A stretch of 64,000 nt of DNA from Pocillopora verrucosa (taxonomy: Eukaryota > Cnidaria > Anthozoa > Scleractinia > Pocilloporidae), in assembly GCF_036669915.1 (NCBI RefSeq), contig NC_089322.1:15723543-15787542 (forward strand). The letters run 5' to 3'. The translations under genes and the position numbers were made by a program. Positions 3,886-30,600 of this stretch are shown here, piece by piece. The notes beneath the pieces were generated by a model. The model was given only the letters and a program-made list of their open reading frames with translations, was not told the DNA's origin and ran no database searches. How positions within the stretch are numbered: the first letter of the stretch is position 1; each line of letters opens with the position of its first letter.

Positions 3886-4637
3886 GCGCATATTCTTGAA
3901 TATTCTCAGGGTTTATAAACTTGAAAGACAACTCAAGACTCCTGATAAATTCCTTCATCCGTGTTTTGAGACGGTAAACTTGGTATGCTGCCGTGTATTT
4001 ACTCGATAAGATAAAAGGTAAGGAAAGGATTTCTATGTGCAGTTTTGTTTTTTAGCACTCTTACGACCAGTTAGATGTCATTATCGACACTATCAGAAAA
4101 TAACGTAATTGCGAAACACGAAAAGTTTACCAAATGCACATATTAGCAATTAAGACCAAAGTAGAATGGTAAATCAACAGGATGCCCGTACTTGATTAAG
4201 CTTCATTTGTGTTCGGAAAGTCTTGAGTATTCATTTTGTTTCCTTTTATAGATTTCTGGGAACATTTCAATAGACCATTTTACGGGAGTTACTACATCAC
4301 GGGGGAGTTACTACATCACGGGCGACGAGCGGGGATAGAAAAAACGACCCAAATATGAGCGGTCAGCCGTGAAACAGCTTTTATAATTCATATAGAGACA
4401 TATAATTTGTTGTTCCAGAGACAATCGTTTTGTTAAGCCGAAATGTTAACAGTTTACTTCACAGTTTAAGCAATTTTTCAAAAGTGTTGATTGAACTCAT
4501 ATCTTTTACTGCTTTAATAAACAATGGAGGCTTCGGAGAGGGAGTCAGTGGCATTTGGAAAGGCACCAAGAATAATTATGTATATGGTTTGTAGCTAGCT
4601 CGACCTCGTAAAGCAAAACATAACTAACCTTTCTGAG

Positions 4638-6648
4638 GTGCAAAGGTCTCTTGATAAATATGTTCGGGAGGATCTATTTTTCGGCCATCCCGAGGAACGA
4701 AGGCCAAAGAAAACAAATAGGCGATACTACCCTTGTCGCCAGGACTTGCGAAACCACATTGCCAAGGCGATTTCAGCAGTGAAGTATTGCGATGACGACC
4801 AAGAAGCATTGGGTAAAAAAATAGAAGATTGGCAAACTAAGTCTCCCAAAAGCAGCTTCTTTTACCGTACCAGAGACGCTGTCATTAACGAAAAAGATGA
4901 ACCAAGACCTAGATCTCCTGAGGAAACCTTCCTCTTTGTACATCAAGAGCCATGGCAACAACGAATGCTTGAAAGATATGGTAGTGAACTGGCCCTGATG
5001 GACGCCAAGTACAAAACGACAAGGTACGCAATTCCACTTTTTTTCGTTTGTGTACATACCAACGTGGGATACAAGGTTGTGGCTGAATTCATATGTCAGT
5101 CCGAAGATCAAGCCTCTATAAGTGAAGCACTTGCCATAATCAAGGGATGGAACCCAGCGTGGAATCCGGCGTACTTCATGGTGGATTATTCCAATGCAGA
5201 AATCGCTGCCCTCGAACAACAATTCCCCAAAAGTTTGGTGTACATTTGTGATTTCCACAGATTACAAGCAATGCACCGCTGGTCCAAGTCAAAGAAGAAT
5301 GGCCTTTCGTCTGCTGAGCAAGAGATATTTTTAGAGCTTATGAAGAGCATCACCTATGCTAGCACAGTTGACAAATTCGAAAAGCGAGTGAATGCCTTGA
5401 AAGAATCCCGGCTTTATTAAGAAAAACCAAATGTTCAGAACTATCTAAACAACACGTGGCTATCATGCCAAGTTCGTTGGGCACAGGCTTTTCGAAAGCA
5501 GCAGGTGACAAACATAGTTAACACCAATAACGGCACTGAGGCGCAAAACAAGCTGTTCAAGTACGAATATCTGCCGAGATCAGTTGACAAATCGGTTTAT
5601 GGCATTGCAACGATGCTGGTAGAATCGTTCATTCCTGACTCGCACAGAAGATATTTGGAAAAGAACCTCAAGTTCAGCGATGCCTATGGAAGATATAATT
5701 CTAGAATACCGACTTATCTTCACAACCGACCACCACAGTTTGTTAAACACTGTTTGGACAGTAGATTTGCCGCTGGTGAATTCACTGAAGCCGACATCTC
5801 ATCCGTAAACTTTCAGAAAGGCCAATTCAGCGTGAAAAGCGCAGCCAACGTGAACAAAAAGGAGCTAGTGGATTTTTCCTATCCTAGTTGCACCTGTACC
5901 TCCTGGAAAAAAAGTAATTACCCTTGCAAACATTTCTTTGCAGTGTTTGCTCGCTACTCTCAGTGGCGATTTGAATCTCTACCCCATCAGTACAGGAGCA
6001 GTGTCTTCATCTCTCTTGATCTGGATCATTTGATTATAAATAAGCATGACAGTAATGCACAGAATTGACATACTTATGTAATTGCTGTATTTTGTTTGAC
6101 TCTGCAGTGCCGTTGCTGATCTCAAAACGGGATGGAATTGCAAGTCATGGCTATGTGTTGAACCACTACATTACACACAGACCGATAGCTATAACTGTGG
6201 TGTGATTGTATGTCTTGTGAGTAGCATAATCACTTGCTAAAGCTCACTTTAATAGGACTGCTTCCTGGTTTCGAATGTATTAAATTTCTCTTTGTTTGTT
6301 TTAAGTTTGCTCGGTGTTTATGTGAGGGGTTGGATATCAATGGAAGTTACGATGTGGACATGGAAAGGGAAAGAATAACGTCTGTCATATTTGGCTCGTG
6401 TTATGATGACCTTGATTGGTAAGTTTTGATGGTGTCAAATACCATTGTTTCTTAAACGCCGCAACACTCTCTTTGACGTCCCATATCTTTTGTTCAATTA
6501 TAGGAGAAATACCGCGGTCTGTAAGATTTGCAAAGACGACGATGGAGAGGATTGGCTTGGGTGCGATAGCTGCAGCCAGTTTTTCCATGCAAGTTGTCTG
6601 GATGTGCCTTTCGCGGAGACGCTTACGCAACATTTCACCTGCCCTTAG
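4638..6648 (+). pseudogene. MULE transposase with SWIM, Ulp1-like and PHD parts, disabled
   Basis: The first coding block, 4638-6068, is one reading frame broken by TAA at 5418-5420. It shows MULE catalytic landmarks: LMDAKYKTTRY (first Asp), YFMVDYSNAEI (second Asp) and the CDFHRLQ signature between Asp and Glu, followed by a SWIM zinc finger (CTCTSWKKSNYPCKHFF). Downstream exons with matching phases follow: about 6106-6216 and 6306-6418 encode an Ulp1/C48 protease tail (HYTQTDSYNCGVIVCL then FARCLCEG), and 6504-6648 encodes a PHD finger (CKICKDDDGEDWLGCDSC...FFHASCL). The protease segment that should carry the catalytic His is missing, the PHD ends at FTCP before its last Cys, and a stop splits the transposase. 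The true start is unclear; an ATG at 4524 is a candidate. Confidence 0.75.
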
Positions 6649-7659
6649 GGTGGCTTCTTGTCAGCACAAGTAGAGTTTAAATTTTAAAGCTGACTATAAC
6701 AACGAACCAGATGATGAACTTAATGTCATGTACAGACCTTAATTTGCAAGATAAGAAATACAGTCCTTGGTAGTCAATTAAGATAGATTTTCACGAGCGT
6801 CAATGGTGCAGAATCGTAACTTGATGGAGCCAACAGTGGACAACATCCCAGAATTCAAACTTTGTGATTTTTTTCTCGGCTTAAACGCTAAGTCAGTTGT
6901 TCAATTGAATAGGAAGAAAAACATTTCGAACGGAAAACAGTATTATTTGCACGTGTGGATCTTTTGAGAAAAGGTCTCCTAAACGAGTGGTCTTGATTGT
7001 AAATATTTAAGGAATGGTAAATACATTAGCCTTAACATGGCTGTTTCTCGAAGCTCAGTGTTTTCCTACTTGCCTTTTCTCCACGTGAATTGGGGGCGAT
7101 TGAATAGATATAATATGCAGTAAAAGAACTTCAGCTGATAGAAATTTTAAATTTCTCATCTTAGGCTGTGGATACAAAATTCAAGTGAAAAGGAAGCCAA
7201 CTGTGACTAATGCTTTGAACAAGTCAAGATACGTTTTTTTCGTCACACAACAAGTTACATAACGTGAATATCATTCTTCTTGATGCCTTTCCCGGTGTCA
7301 CCAATGCCTTTCCCGATGCCTCCGTTGGTTAATAGAGCATTAAAAGTATTGTTCCAGTTAAAGCTTGAGGAAAATTGCTTAACTTTTTAAGTAGCGAAGT
7401 ATAACTTGGTAACATTTCGGCTTTACAACACGATTGTTTTCTGCAACTACAAAACGTACATTTAATTCTTCTTGGTACCTTTCGGATGCCACCGATGCCT
7501 TCATGGTTTATTAAAGCAGTAAAAGATATATGTACAATCAGCACTTTTGAATTGCTTAACATTTTATTTAGCGAAGTAAACTGTTTACACTTCGGCTTTA
7601 CAACACGATTGTTTCCTGATACTACAAATGATCTGTCTATATATGAAGCATGAAAGTTA
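6649..7659. other. Non-coding 3' part of the MULE with a two-unit subterminal repeat
   Basis: No coding region is supported. Two diverged direct copies share GCTTAAC, TAGCGAAGTA and TTCGGCTTTACAACACGATT. One lies near 7370-7450 and the other near 7550-7630, with related GATGCC-rich sequence before each. Subterminal repeats of this kind are common transposase-binding regions in DNA transposons; that role here is inference. Confidence 0.5.
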
Positions 7660-7848
7660 TTTCACCGCTGACCACTCGTATTTGGGTCGTTTTTTCTATC
7701 CCCGCTCGCCATTTTACAGTTCCCGACGCCATATTGGATTAGTAACCGCGCACACATGACAACGAGGCTGGGGTGACTCGTGTAAAATGTCTGCGAGTGA
7801 TTTTGGTGAAAATTCGCACGTGGGTAGTAAAATTGTTTGATTTTTATG

Positions 7849-8150
7849 GAAATGGATGGCCCTAGCCGAAATCTCGACAAAGGTAATTCTTCTTCTAAAA
7901 AAAAGGAAAGCAGTGTGCCGCTTTTTGCTGTTCAAGTACATTTTATGGTCCTAATTGTTTGCCTACGAGCTTGCACTTCTTCAAGTTTCCGAAGGATACG
8001 AACAGAAGACGCCGATGGTGCAATCTCATCAAACGTCAGCATGGGAAAGATGGCTTTTTCGTGACAAATTCAACGGTGGTTTGCTCAGAACACTTTCGAA
8101 AAAAAGACATACGGAAAACTTTAACAGGCCGCTGGGAATTAGAGTCAGGT
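7849..8150 (+). pseudogene. THAP-domain remnant, left arm of the palindrome
   Basis: Translation from about 7905 gives KQCAAFCCSSTFYGPNC, then LPTSLHFFKFPKDTNRRRRW and STVVCSEHFRKKDI. This fits the THAP zinc finger (C2CH) with its FxFP segment and C-x2-H pair. The upstream peptide MDGPSRNLDKGNSSSKKK is in another frame, joined through a run of eight A bases, so one base is missing or gained there. No transposase catalytic part follows. The same sequence with the same A-run is present in the right arm, so the frameshift predates the inverted duplication. Confidence 0.65.
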
Positions 8151-8689
8151 TTGTCTTCAAAAGACTATATTCATCTATCACTACATTTTTTGCTGATCAC
8201 CCTAATGTTGATGTCACTACCACATTGTTTTTATCGGATATTATGTTTATTGGTTGCTCTACTTCGACTTATATTTGAATAAAATATACGAATAAAGGCC
8301 ACCAAAATTAAAAGACTTGATGCGTGCCTCTTTATTTTGTCTTGGACCCAAATTTATTAACCTAAATGAACCCGAATGATCATATGCCTCACAAATTGTC
8401 AAAGTCTGTGCCTTATTGACAAACTTTCTTCCTCCATTACTAAAGTCAACTTATCAACGGTAGTTTAATTGAAATACTCCAACCCACAGACAAAAAAAGG
8501 TTACAAGGACGTTATATAATTTAACCCTTTCACTCGCAGGATCCCTTTAGTTACTCTTCCCACTTTCTGCTTTACATTTCATGTAAACTGGGATGGTTCA
8601 GAACCTGGAAATACATGAAACAACAACATTCGGGTTCATTTAGGTTAATAAATTTGGGTCCAAGACAATGTAGTGATAGATGAATATAG

Positions 8690-9002
8690 TCTTTTGAAGA
8701 CAAACCTGACTCTAATTCCCAGCGGCCTGTTAAAGTTTTCCGTATGTCTTCTTTTCGAAAATGTTCTGAGCAAACCACCGTTGAATTTGTCAAGAAAAAG
8801 CCATCTTTCCCATGCTGACGTTTGATGAGATTGCATCATCGGCGTCTTCTGTTCGTATCCTTCGGAAACTTGAAGAAGTGCAAGCTCGTAGGCAAACAAT
8901 TAGGACCATAACATGTATTTGAACAGCAAAAAGCGGCACACTGCTTTCCTTTTTTTTAGAAGAAGAATTACCTTTGTCGAGATTTCGGCTAGGGCCATCC
9001 AT
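8690..9002 (-). pseudogene. THAP-domain remnant, right arm of the palindrome
   Basis: Reverse-strand copy of the left-arm THAP fragment, with the peptides MDGPSRNLDKGNSSSKKK and NSTVVCSEHFRKEDI. Differences from the left arm are few (for example RKEDI against RKKDI), showing that the arms separated recently. It is non-functional for the same reasons. Confidence 0.65.
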
Positions 9003-9161
9003 TTCGATAAAAATCGAACAATTTTATTACCCACGTGCGAATTTTCACCAAAATCACTCGCAGAGATTTTACACGAGTCAACCCCAGCCTCGTTGTCATG
9101 TGTGCGCGGTTACTAATCCAATATGGCGTCGGGAACTGTAAAATGGTCTATTCCGCCATGA

Positions 9162-27600: not shown

Positions 27601-30600
27601 ATGGCAACTTCAAACTGTGAAGGTACGTTTTCACGAGCTTTCTGAGACTGTGTTTTTATCCCGGCATTGACCTTTGTCTGGATGAAGTGGGGGATCGCTT
27701 GTTCGTGGAAGCTTTTACGAAATCTATATTTAAGAATTATAAACCCTGTGTTAAAGTTGATAAGTTTTCATTATCATTGAATAAAAACCTTGGCTCCTAC
27801 GTTTCAGAAGGTCAGTCATGATCAGAGAGATTTTTCATGAGCGTAAGATGACGTTTAACTGTCTTTGGCAATGTCTACTTCCATTTCGACAAACTGTTTG
27901 AATTCAGAATTCTGCCTTTGTAGCGTTTCCCAGTGCTATTGGCGGTGTGTCCAGTCTCATTGAAGACGAGAAGTTCGATTTTGACGTGCCACTCTCGCCA
28001 ATTGATTTTGATGTTCGGTAAGTTACACTGCATGTGTGTATCAATTGTTGGTTATCAACCAGAAAGTACGTAAATAGCAATTGTTCCCACAAGATCGGTT
28101 GAATAATAGCAATTGTTCCCACAAGATCGGTTGAATTACAGTTGCTTACATGCCATGGCTCCAGCAGGAAATATGAAATGTTTGTTATTTCAATGTTTTT
28201 CGACACACAAATGCGCGTTAGGTCTTAGACATATACCGGTGGTTGAAGGAGTATACAAAAGTACAAATTTTTCTCGAAGTCTCAATGTTAAAAGGAAGTC
28301 AAATTCCTTACTAGCTTTATTCTCCAATAAAGCTCTGACCATTCGGGGGCAGGGGGGGAGGGGCATTGGGGCACTCAAATGAAAGGGGAAGGGATACTTG
28401 TCGGAGTGTGCAAAATCCCATTGCAGCTATGAAGATCTTTGAATTTTTCTTGTAACATCAATACCTAAAGAAATCAAAGTAAACTGTCTCTGTTTCAAAG
28501 TGGTCTCTTGTTTGTGCCAAGAGTTTTCTTCCTGAGGGACTTAATCTAAAATCTCGGATGATCATTCTCTTCTGTTTAGAAGTCTACCCTTCTTTCCAAG
28601 ACTAACCAGCAACCAGGCATGCTCCTCAATGAAGAAAAAACCCTTCCACTCAAAATTCTGCCTTCACCCAAGAGTTATCTTAAAATTATTTTACTGGTAC
28701 TTGCTTTTGAAGAACAACTTACTGAAAAAGATTGAGGCCTGTACTAGAAAATATTGGCCATCAGTCTTGGCAGCATGGACCAAGGGTGGTAAGGTCCATA
28801 CAGAGTTATCTATTAGGGCCAATATTTCCTAGTATGGCTCATGCAAGGAAGATTGATAAGAAGTTTATTGCATGGCACTTAGACCAAAGTTGTTTATTTT
28901 GAATTTTCCAGCTTTCACAAATAAAAGTGCAAGGATAATGACCTTTTTTTTTACAAAATGTCGACCAATCAAAAACCAATCAGAACACTCAGATGTACCT
29001 CAAGACTACCTCACCATATAATAATACATAATACTTTTTCTCCTTTTTCTTTATCAGAGAGATTAATGCTGATGAAGAAGATGAGGATGAAGTCTTCTTT
29101 GGTCCTGTGGGTCACAGAGAAAGATGTGTTACTGTTAACAGTGGTGTTCAAGATGACGAGAAATTTAAGCCCTTGAGTCCCCTCAATGGTGAACAAATTG
29201 CAGAACTGTTTAAAGAAGCCACTGCAGTGTCAATATTCATCAAAAATTCTTCCTTAACTCAGAATAATGATAATGTGACAGATGAAAAGGAGAATCGTGA
29301 TATATGTAAGCTTTTATCACAAACATTTACTGTCCAAGATGATAAAAAAGCTGTGTCAGCTGAAAGAGATCTAGAAAATGACCAAAGAACTACAAAATCT
29401 GCTTCTTCCCCTGAGTCAGCTAGCAGTATTTCACCACAGTCAACAGAATTTTCAGATGACATGAATTTCCCTGTTACTCCAAGGAGAATTTTGCAAGAAA
29501 GCAACACCCAGAGTGGAGTGTTTCAGTCACCCTTTAAAGCACGAAAAGCACGTCCTTTGCAAAATACTTCTAAGTTTGCTCAATCCAAGCTTCCCACAAC
29601 ACAGATGACTCTGAAGACTCGTAGTTGTTTTAATTCTGTAAGTATGATTGCAGTGCTGTTTCATTAATGTTTCCCAAACATTCAAAACTTTCAAAATGTA
29701 CCTACAATTTTGCTTAAGATTGGCAGCCCAGTGACTAGAAGCACACTTAAAGCTGCTGATTGTTTCGCACGTTTTAAAACTACAGTACCATAGTCAAACC
29801 TGTGTTAAGCAGCACAGAACTAAGCACTCACCCTGTAATAAGCAGTCAGTTGTCAAAGTCCTGAAATTGTTTCCCCTTAATTGCAGTAACTTTTACCTCT
29901 ATTTAGTGGTCACCTCCATTAAGTGGTCACAGTGAGTCACCCTTCAGTGAGTTTCAATGGCTTTTTTGTACAGTCCCCCACCTGTACTGAATGGTCAGTT
30001 AACCTGGAACCACTTAACACTTTAACTCCTATGAGTGAGCATGACAGAATTTCTCTTTACAATATCAATACAATATCAACCAGACAAGTGACGAGAATAA
30101 AGAAAAATGTTAATTTAGGGATAATTCGTAGATCCAATGCTAAATTCTCTGAACTAACATTATAAGAATTGTATGGTTGACAGTGAGAAGAATTACAGAT
30201 TTGATCTGGGAATTAAAGGGTTACTAATCAAAACTACTTCAAAATTCTTTAAAGTGATTGGCTATCACCAGCCTGATTTGAACACTAATAAGGACAGTGT
30301 ACGTTCTGACTTAAGCTCTGTTTTTGTGTCATTTCTTCAAGCTGTTCAATCTGTTGTTGATTATTCAATTTAGGGCAGAAGTTCAGATTGTTATGAACTC
30401 TTGCTCGTATTAAATCATTTCAGCCTATAAAAGTAGAACATCTGTATGGTCTGAGACGGAAAACTGGTGGTTCAGAGGATGAAAAGGTAAATACAGCTTA
30501 ATGTAGACACAAAGTAGACCTCAAATAAATTAACTTCATCAGTAAGAAGAGGGTTTGTACCTGGCCCGGAAAGTCATGGAATTTTGGTTTAGGACCTGTA

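What the first reader, a model, noticed from the sequence alone, without database searches (positions are those of the whole stretch)
4284..7708. Mutator-like element joining transposase, SWIM, Ulp1-like protease and PHD finger
Within one pair of 49-bp inverted repeats lie a MULE transposase with SWIM finger, an Ulp1/C48 tail (QTDSYNCGV) and a C4HC3 PHD finger, linked by introns with matching phases. Ulp1 capture by MULEs is known from plants; here it occurs in an animal element together with a chromatin-reader finger. Intact relatives might target SUMO and histone marks.
Basis: partly seen in the sequence, partly recalled or inferred. Interest (0 to 1): 0.8.

Follow-up and report, generated by a model that had tools for sequence, protein, structure and literature searches.

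The report
Coral Mutator transposon with SUMO-protease tail
The window holds a broken, twice-deleted copy of an animal Mutator transposon whose better-preserved relatives encode a transposase followed by a SUMO-type protease and a PHD finger; this pairing was already published for related elements in Hydra, so it is a well-documented new member rather than a new kind.

Summary
Window 4284-7708 is a Mutator-like element (MULE) with an exact 9-bp target duplication, long imperfect inverted repeats, a MULE/SWIM transposase frame with one in-frame stop, and three exons that splice in frame into an Ulp1 C-terminal half and a PHD finger. The copy is dead: two deletions removed the N-terminal DNA-binding part (~1.56 kb) and the linker plus the protease's His/Asp half (~1.8 kb). 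A twin elsewhere carries both junctions and a different target duplication, so the deleted form moved in trans. Six of seven siblings that keep the missing segment read His, Asp, Gln, Cys and PHD. Seven of twelve long-frame relatives in the genome were fetched: seven of seven carry Ulp1, five of seven a PHD. A Hydra gene model (P0071) passes Pfam cut-offs for all four domains. Ulp1 and PHD exons differ mostly at third codon positions, like the transposase. One oddity: in the three anthozoan families closest to the window, the PHD stops after its seventh zinc ligand.

The parts
4275..4283 (.). left 9-bp target-site duplication CCATTTTAC
   Evidence: identical to 7709-7717
4284..4321 (+). family terminal 19-mer GGGAGTTACTACATCACGG, present twice (4284-4302, 4303-4321)
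   Evidence: sibling ends carry it once; 158 genome matches to the 20-base end with up to 1 mismatch, 0 to the reversed control
4303..4594 (+). left inverted repeat (imperfect)
   Evidence: 4326-4594 pairs with 7447-7708 at 77% over 278 columns
4600..4601 (.). scar of deletion A: ~1.56 kb lost, including the coding part upstream of residue 89 of P0010 (N-terminal DNA-binding region)
   Evidence: L023 and L024 carry ~1.56 kb between these two bases; same junction in twin L020
4599..6065 (+). transposase reading frame, broken by TAA at 5418-5420
   Evidence: P0001 97.5% over 367 aa
4995..5264 (+). MULE DDE (RNaseH-like) domain; D at 5001-5003 and 5184-5186, candidate E further on at 5538-5540 (residue roles recalled)
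   Evidence: Pfam PF10551, residues 133-222; motif positions
5889..5933 (+). SWIM zinc finger CTCTSWKKSNYPCKH
   Evidence: Pfam PF04434 E=4.3e-5; position
6067..6068 (.). scar of deletion B: ~1.8 kb lost (linker plus Ulp1 half with His and Asp)
   Evidence: L019 carries 1797 bp between these bases; other copies start or end at exactly this base; same junction in L020
6108..6216 (+). Ulp1 C-terminal exon with Gln and Cys (QTDSYNCGV)
   Evidence: 58.5% to P0038 678-718; donor GTGAGT at 6217
6306..6418 (+). Ulp1 last exon (FARCLCEG...SCYDDLD)
   Evidence: AG acceptor 6304-6305, donor GTAAGT at 6419, frame kept; P0038 708-749
6504..6648 (+). PHD finger exon ending Cys-Pro-stop
   Evidence: Pfam PHD E=8.4e-9; 62.5% to P0038 750-797
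7447..7708 (-). right inverted repeat, lacking the last ~23 bp of the family terminus; overlaps a ~180-bp subterminal duplication (7256-7453 / 7448-7628)
7709..7717 (.). right 9-bp target-site duplication CCATTTTAC

Best explanation
Shown: a non-autonomous, internally deleted copy of an animal Mutator transposon family; siblings and relatives give the gene order N-terminal DNA-binding region, MULE DDE transposase, SWIM, linker, Ulp1/C48 protease, PHD finger. Shown: the doubly deleted form sits at two loci with different 9-bp target duplications. Inferred from that: it was mobilised in trans by a transposase made elsewhere. Inferred, most likely mechanism: in the autonomous element the N-terminal region binds the inverted repeats and the DDE core cuts and joins with a 9-bp stagger. 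The Ulp1 domain strips SUMO (or a related modifier) from repair or silencing proteins on the transposon's chromatin, and the PHD finger docks the complex on histone H3 tails, favouring accessible donor or target chromatin.
Against: No intact autonomous copy of the window's own family was found: 29 end-to-end copies among 100 listed of 158 ends are 1.06-3.6 kb, against about 6.8 kb expected. Four of nine inspected copies show no exact duplication (L015, L016, L017; L019's match does not reach its end). The sister element's proposed ends show no TSD, and L034 and L036 change frame between SWIM and linker, by intron or frameshift. P0038's gene model skips part of the transposase. The protease's substrate and the PHD's ligand are untested. 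The P0038 model is of low confidence over Ulp1 and PHD. L043 shows no PHD.
Confidence: 0.72

Rival explanations
1. Ulp1 and PHD are unrelated host gene pieces captured recently, as in plant Pack-MULEs, and do nothing for the transposon.
For: MULEs often capture gene fragments (PMC13317346, passages seen). Several related gene models lack a recognisable Ulp1. The window's protease is incomplete.
Against: The same order recurs in L034-L036, in L041 and L042/L045, in an octocoral gene model and in Hydra and Clytia gene models. The exons show a third-position excess, and all four catalytic residues are read in 6 of 7 siblings and 3 of 3 sister copies.
Confidence: 0.07
2. The Ulp1-PHD tail is an anti-silencing module, like the VANC proteins of plant VANDAL MULEs, rather than part of the cutting or targeting reaction.
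For: Some VANDALs carry a VANC gene with an Ulp1 domain and lose methylation in trans (PMC13317346, passages seen). A SUMO protease could undo SUMO-dependent silencing (recalled).
Against: Here the domains follow the transposase in the same gene order, not in a separate VANC-like gene. No expression or methylation data were available.
Confidence: 0.35
3. The gene has been domesticated and the family is no longer mobile.
For: No intact copy of the window's family was seen.
Against: 158 matches to the end sequence, many copies at 93-99% identity, exact TSDs in 5 of 9, deletion derivatives sharing junctions. These are marks of recent transposition.
Confidence: 0.03

Closest known systems
Ulp1-carrying Mutator (MuDR) transposons of Hydra magnipapillata and Branchiostoma floridae (Repbase Reports 2008 and 2009, as cited in PMC2836005)
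   Same: Animal Mutator elements with Ulp1; the legend of Figure 1e says Ulp1 and PHD domains of Ginger1 and Mutator transposases are aligned, PHD boxed.
   Different: Hydra proteins P0071 and P0077 are 38-39% identical to the window in the transposase, have a PHD with the eighth Cys and fall in a separate clade. The Repbase sequences themselves and the figure were not available to compare.
Ginger1-9_HM (PMC2836005, Table 1)
   Same: Hydra DNA transposon with Ulp1 plus PHD at the C-terminus of the transposase.
   Different: Gypsy-integrase-like transposase, 4-bp CCGG-type TSD; the MULE here has a Mutator DDE with SWIM and a 9-bp TSD.
Kaonashi / KI-MULEs of plants
   Same: MULE-borne Ulp1.
   Different: Plant, non-TIR VANDAL elements, Ulp1 in a VANC-type gene; the word PHD does not occur in the review read in passages (PMC13317346).
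RAG2 PHD with the Transib-derived RAG1 transposase (PMC4411706, passages seen)
   Same: A PHD-bearing protein working with a DDE transposase.
   Different: Separate proteins and another superfamily; an analogy for chromatin targeting only.
Rehavkus elements (PMC6446971, Table 1 and passages)
   Same: MULE-like DDE, 9-bp TSD, PHD finger.
   Different: No Ulp1 listed; a minisatellite; arthropod and annelid hosts.

Membership tests
Mutator-like (MULE) superfamily | 8-11 bp, usually 9-bp, target-site duplication | tested here: met
   exact 9 bp in the window copy and four siblings, 5 of 9 copies inspected
Mutator-like (MULE) superfamily | MULE DDE transposase domain | tested here: met
   PF10551 38.3 bits, cut-off 27.6
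Mutator-like (MULE) superfamily | terminal inverted repeats | tested here: met
Ulp1 / peptidase C48 | catalytic His, Asp, Gln, Cys in the window copy | tested here: not met
   only the Gln and Cys half is present; tblastn of P0038 finds no residues 284-677 in the window
Ulp1 / peptidase C48 | catalytic His, Asp, Gln, Cys in sibling and sister elements | tested here: met
   motifs for all four in 6 of 7 siblings (L013, L014, L016-L019; L015 lacks the Asp match) and 3 of 3 sister copies; L045 by eye
Ulp1 / peptidase C48 | deSUMOylating activity | not testable with these tools
PHD finger | Pfam PHD profile | tested here: met
   35.8 bits, cut-off 24
PHD finger | complete C4HC3 zinc ligand set | tested here: not met
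   reading ends Cys-Pro-stop before the eighth ligand; the same stop in L013, L015-L020 and L034-L036, and P0038 ends there
Ginger1 | Gypsy-integrase-like transposase and 4-bp TSD | tested here: not met
   MULE domain and 9-bp TSD
Kaonashi / KI-MULE | non-TIR VANDAL element with Ulp1 in a VANC-type gene | tested here: not met
   TIRs present and Ulp1 downstream of the transposase in the same gene order
Pack-MULE | captured host gene fragments without transposase coding | tested here: not met
   transposase frame present; Ulp1 and PHD shared with relatives

The most novel reading that the evidence does not exclude
A lineage of cnidarian Mutator transposons, old enough to be shared by stony coral, octocoral and hydrozoan relatives, has kept a SUMO-type protease and a PHD reader behind its transposase as working parts of transposition; two branches of it (the window's and a Hydra-like one) live in the same genome. 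In the window's branch the PHD has evolved into a form that closes at the protein's last residues with seven zinc ligands. The same Ulp1-PHD pair in Ginger1-9 would then be convergent or swapped between two unrelated transposase superfamilies.
Probability: 0.35. Interest if true: 0.65.

Novelty: new member of a known kind. Interest (0 to 1): 0.4.

Why it matters
It gives a genome with many similar copies, deletion derivatives that move in trans, and well-preserved relatives carrying the protease and PHD. The old question why unrelated DNA transposons keep SUMO/ubiquitin-type proteases becomes testable by comparing tail-bearing and tail-less relatives. The kind itself was described by 2010, so the advance is in documentation, not in concept.

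Tried and rejected
Recent unrelated gene capture was rejected because the order recurs across families. Domestication was rejected because of copy number and TSDs. The 49-bp repeat as the element's terminus was rejected because sibling ends start further out. A viral-contig scan with P0001 gave two pattern matches and no relative. A protein search with P0038 residues 430-797 returned only itself; one with P0077 residues 540-847 returned 8 proteins. Pfam called no Ulp1 in the fish protein P0073, although its last part looks Ulp1-like by eye. The AlphaFold model of P0038 was poor over Ulp1 and PHD, so P0124, which has no transposase core, was used for the fold comparison. The literature searches covered open-licence PubMed Central only. 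The novelty verdict rests on PMC2836005 (abstract, section 5 in full, other passages; the figure was not held). Of PMC6446971, PMC13317346, PMC10027918, PMC4411706, PMC3212892 and PMC12220107 I saw passages (the abstract too for PMC6446971).

A genome-wide copy count of the deleted 1.8-kb segment was requested nine times and never answered; a P0001 protein search twice. Of 12 distinct places with an open frame of 500 aa or more, five were not fetched.
Full report
WHAT IS THERE. Window 4284-7708 is bounded by an exact 9-bp duplication, CCATTTTAC. Inside are imperfect inverted repeats (4326-4594 against 7447-7708, 77% over 278 columns; best 93 bp at 85%). A plus-strand frame at 4599-6065, with one in-frame stop at 5418-5420, scores as ZSWIM1-3 RNaseH-like (E=2.3e-12), MULE (1.8e-9) and SWIM (4.3e-5); a match to ALS2CR8 at its start lies just below Pfam's cut-off (28.6 against 28.9 bits).

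THE TAIL. Three more exons follow: about 6108-6216, 6306-6418 and 6504-6648. The two introns between them have GT-AG ends and keep the frame. The first two spell the C-terminal half of an Ulp1-type protease with Gln and Cys (QTDSYNCGV); the third is a PHD finger (E=8.4e-9). Pfam alone sees nothing in the Ulp1 exons. The joined tail matches a Dendronephthya gigantea gene model, P0038, at 54.5% over 121 aa, E=1.2e-50, across both splice points. P0038 scans as C48 peptidase (36.2 bits, cut-off 20.7) and PHD (27.9, cut-off 24), with MULE and SWIM below cut-off; its model skips part of the transposase, the window's 5136-5480.

THE COPY IS DELETED TWICE. The window lies in a 353-Mb assembly at C11:15723543-15787542. 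The element has 164 matches there, 40 of 231 candidates being scored. Against siblings the window lacks ~1.56 kb at 4600|4601 and 1797 bp at 6067|6068. The first holds the coding part before residue 89 of P0010, that is the N-terminal DNA-binding region. The second holds the linker and the protease half with His and Asp. Copy L020 on C6 has both junctions, is 97.6% identical over 3407 columns, and has another target duplication, AGAGAATTT. So the doubly deleted form transposed after it was made, which needs a transposase from elsewhere (inference).

SIBLINGS HOLD THE MISSING HALF. Seven of the thirteen loci (L013-L019) carry the last ~490 bp or more of the missing segment at 96.8-97.4% identity (L019 is the query itself). 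A motif scan reads His in 7 of 7 (in L018 behind a stop), Asp in 6 of 7 (not L015), Gln and Cys in 7 of 7, and the PHD core in 7 of 7 (L019 lacks its first ligands). L009 has the transposase followed by the whole segment at 92.5%, broken by stops and a frame change, then runs into bases that read N. Five of nine copies inspected have exact 9-bp duplications: window, L013, L014, L018, L020. L015, L016 and L017 do not; L019's match stops short of its end. The family end GGGAGTTACTACATCACGGG has 158 genome matches with up to one mismatch and none for the reversed control. Of 100 listed places, 29 inward pairs span 1.06-3.6 kb; the sum of the parts predicts about 6.8 kb. I found no intact copy of this family; 58 of 158 ends were not listed, and a longer copy may have lost an end.

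CLOSE RELATIVES. A P0038 search of the genome gave 64 matches; twelve distinct places have an open frame of 500 aa or more. The three best (634, 669 and 614 aa) were fetched as L034, L036 and L035. All three carry, in order, transposase with SWIM, linker, Ulp1 in several exons, and PHD, with His (GHHWTLLV), Asp (VYIDPIHG), Gln and Cys (QQTDGFNCGV) in 3 of 3 and a PHD ending YCP-stop in 3 of 3. They are 95-98% identical to each other (whose script failed after printing this). They are not shown to be intact: frame changes between SWIM and linker occur in L034 and L036, with different offsets, and L035's linker matches in two frames. The C5 copy is bounded by 85-bp inverted repeats at 97.6% about 7.95 kb apart, without a target duplication at those ends. 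Against L034, differences at codon positions 1/2/3 are 9/6/21 of 33 codons (Ulp1 C exon), 16/13/22 of 35 (last Ulp1 exon), 15/11/35 of 47 (PHD), and for L014's His and Asp exons 25/16/40 of 63 and 9/4/11 of 18; the transposase gives 11/11/44 of 67 and 55/48/111 of 183. The tail has evolved as coding sequence; the excess is weakest in the last Ulp1 exon.

DISTANT RELATIVES IN THE SAME GENOME. Four more of the twelve places were fetched downstream of the match (L041-L044). All four match the Hydra-type tail; the match covers Ulp1 and PHD in L041 and L042, Ulp1 with only the start of a PHD in L044, and Ulp1 alone in L043. A longer fetch of the L042 place (L045) shows SWIM, linker, Ulp1 (SHHWVLV, YLYDSL, QHQNNSDDCG) and a PHD with all eight ligands (by eye) in one uninterrupted 689-aa frame. 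In all, 7 of 7 fetched relatives carry Ulp1 and 5 of 7 a PHD, three of these being the seven-ligand form; five of twelve places were not fetched. They raised the odds of the novel case from 0.3 to 0.35 and lowered the gene-capture rival from 0.08 to 0.07.

WIDER RELATIVES. Of 120 listed homologues, precomputed Pfam shows C48 in two (P0038, P0071) and PHD in three (P0038, P0064, P0071). Hydra P0071 passes the Pfam cut-offs for MULE, SWIM, C48 and PHD; P0077 passes C48 but its PHD is just below (22.8 against 24); Clytia P0064 passes PHD but its C48 is below (17.7 against 20.7). P0122 and P0123 have precomputed PHD and C48 respectively. Nematostella P0078 has the Ulp1 tail. Gene models P0059, P0060, P0072, P0074 and P0075 end without a recognisable Ulp1, by eye and by precomputed Pfam. 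In a FastTree of 69 of 126 proteins plus the window and a few shorter ones, the window groups with P0001, P0006 and Pocillopora P0076 (support 0.99), and the hydrozoan tail-bearing proteins form another clade (0.993) which also holds one Hydra model without the tail. One ancient gain with losses, or separate gains, are both possible. The host is probably a stony coral near Pocillopora (inference).

PHD END. The PHD stops right after Cys-Pro, the seventh ligand, in the window, L013, L015-L020 and L034-L036, and P0038 ends at the same residues; L014 reads on past this point. Hydra and Clytia models P0071, P0077 and P0064 go on to an eighth Cys; P0122 does not. L045 has it. A conserved shortened PHD is the simplest reading; an unseen further exon is not excluded.

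MECHANISM. Shown: architecture, deletion, re-insertion of the deleted form. Inferred: the tail acts in transposition or in escape from silencing. Bao and co-authors suggested that Ulp1 and OTU domains may activate repair factors (PMC2836005, discussion passage). Plant VANDALs with Ulp1-bearing VANC genes lose methylation in trans (PMC13317346, passages).

NOVELTY. PMC2836005 states that Ulp1 is encoded in Mutator transposons of hydra and lancelet as well as plants; its Figure 1e legend describes an alignment of Ulp1 and PHD domains of Ginger1 and Mutator transposases; its Table 1 lists Ginger1-9_HM with Ulp1 and PHD. The MULE survey PMC6446971 has no occurrence of Ulp1, C48, protease or peptidase. 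The finding is therefore a new, well-documented member of a known kind.

Noticed in passing
7709-9146 (with 4269-4283): A large palindrome (arms of 418 nt at 97% and 66 nt at 100%) containing a THAP-domain reading frame (E=1.2e-11). The MULE sits inside its left end: AATAGACCATTTTAC left of the MULE matches GTAAAATGGTCTATT at the far end, so the insertion is nested in another repeat, probably a mobile element.
   Followed up: partly
50-1450 and 27651-29048: Direct repeats about 27.6 kb apart at 92-100% identity, a probable segmental duplication.
   Followed up: no
4284-4321 and 7708: The window copy has its left terminal 19-mer doubled and its right end short by ~23 bp, yet an exact 9-bp target duplication: the transposase may have used a shortened end.
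   Followed up: partly
L016 and L017 (C2:20.004-20.018 Mb): Two inverted copies about 8 kb apart seem to share a flank (CTGCGACTAG right of one and left of the other), as after an inversion by recombination between them.
   Followed up: no
L033 572-2080: Part of the element's 3' region (query 2610-2795) occurs six times at 272-bp spacing, recalling the minisatellites that PMC6446971 lists for Rehavkus and aphid Phantom elements.
   Followed up: no
L045 2362-4428 (C6:11.22 Mb): A distant MULE relative with SWIM, complete Ulp1 and an eight-ligand PHD in one uninterrupted 689-aa frame; its transposase core upstream was not examined.
   Followed up: partly
P0073 (Megalobrama), last ~130 residues: A fish MULE protein with a stretch that looks like the start of an Ulp1 domain (HPHWLNDKVINAYLDTL) by eye; Pfam does not call it.
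   Followed up: partly
14770-38863: Reading frames that look like host genes (adhesion-GPCR-like near 24 kb, ALG10-like at 34-39 kb), by eye only.
   Followed up: no
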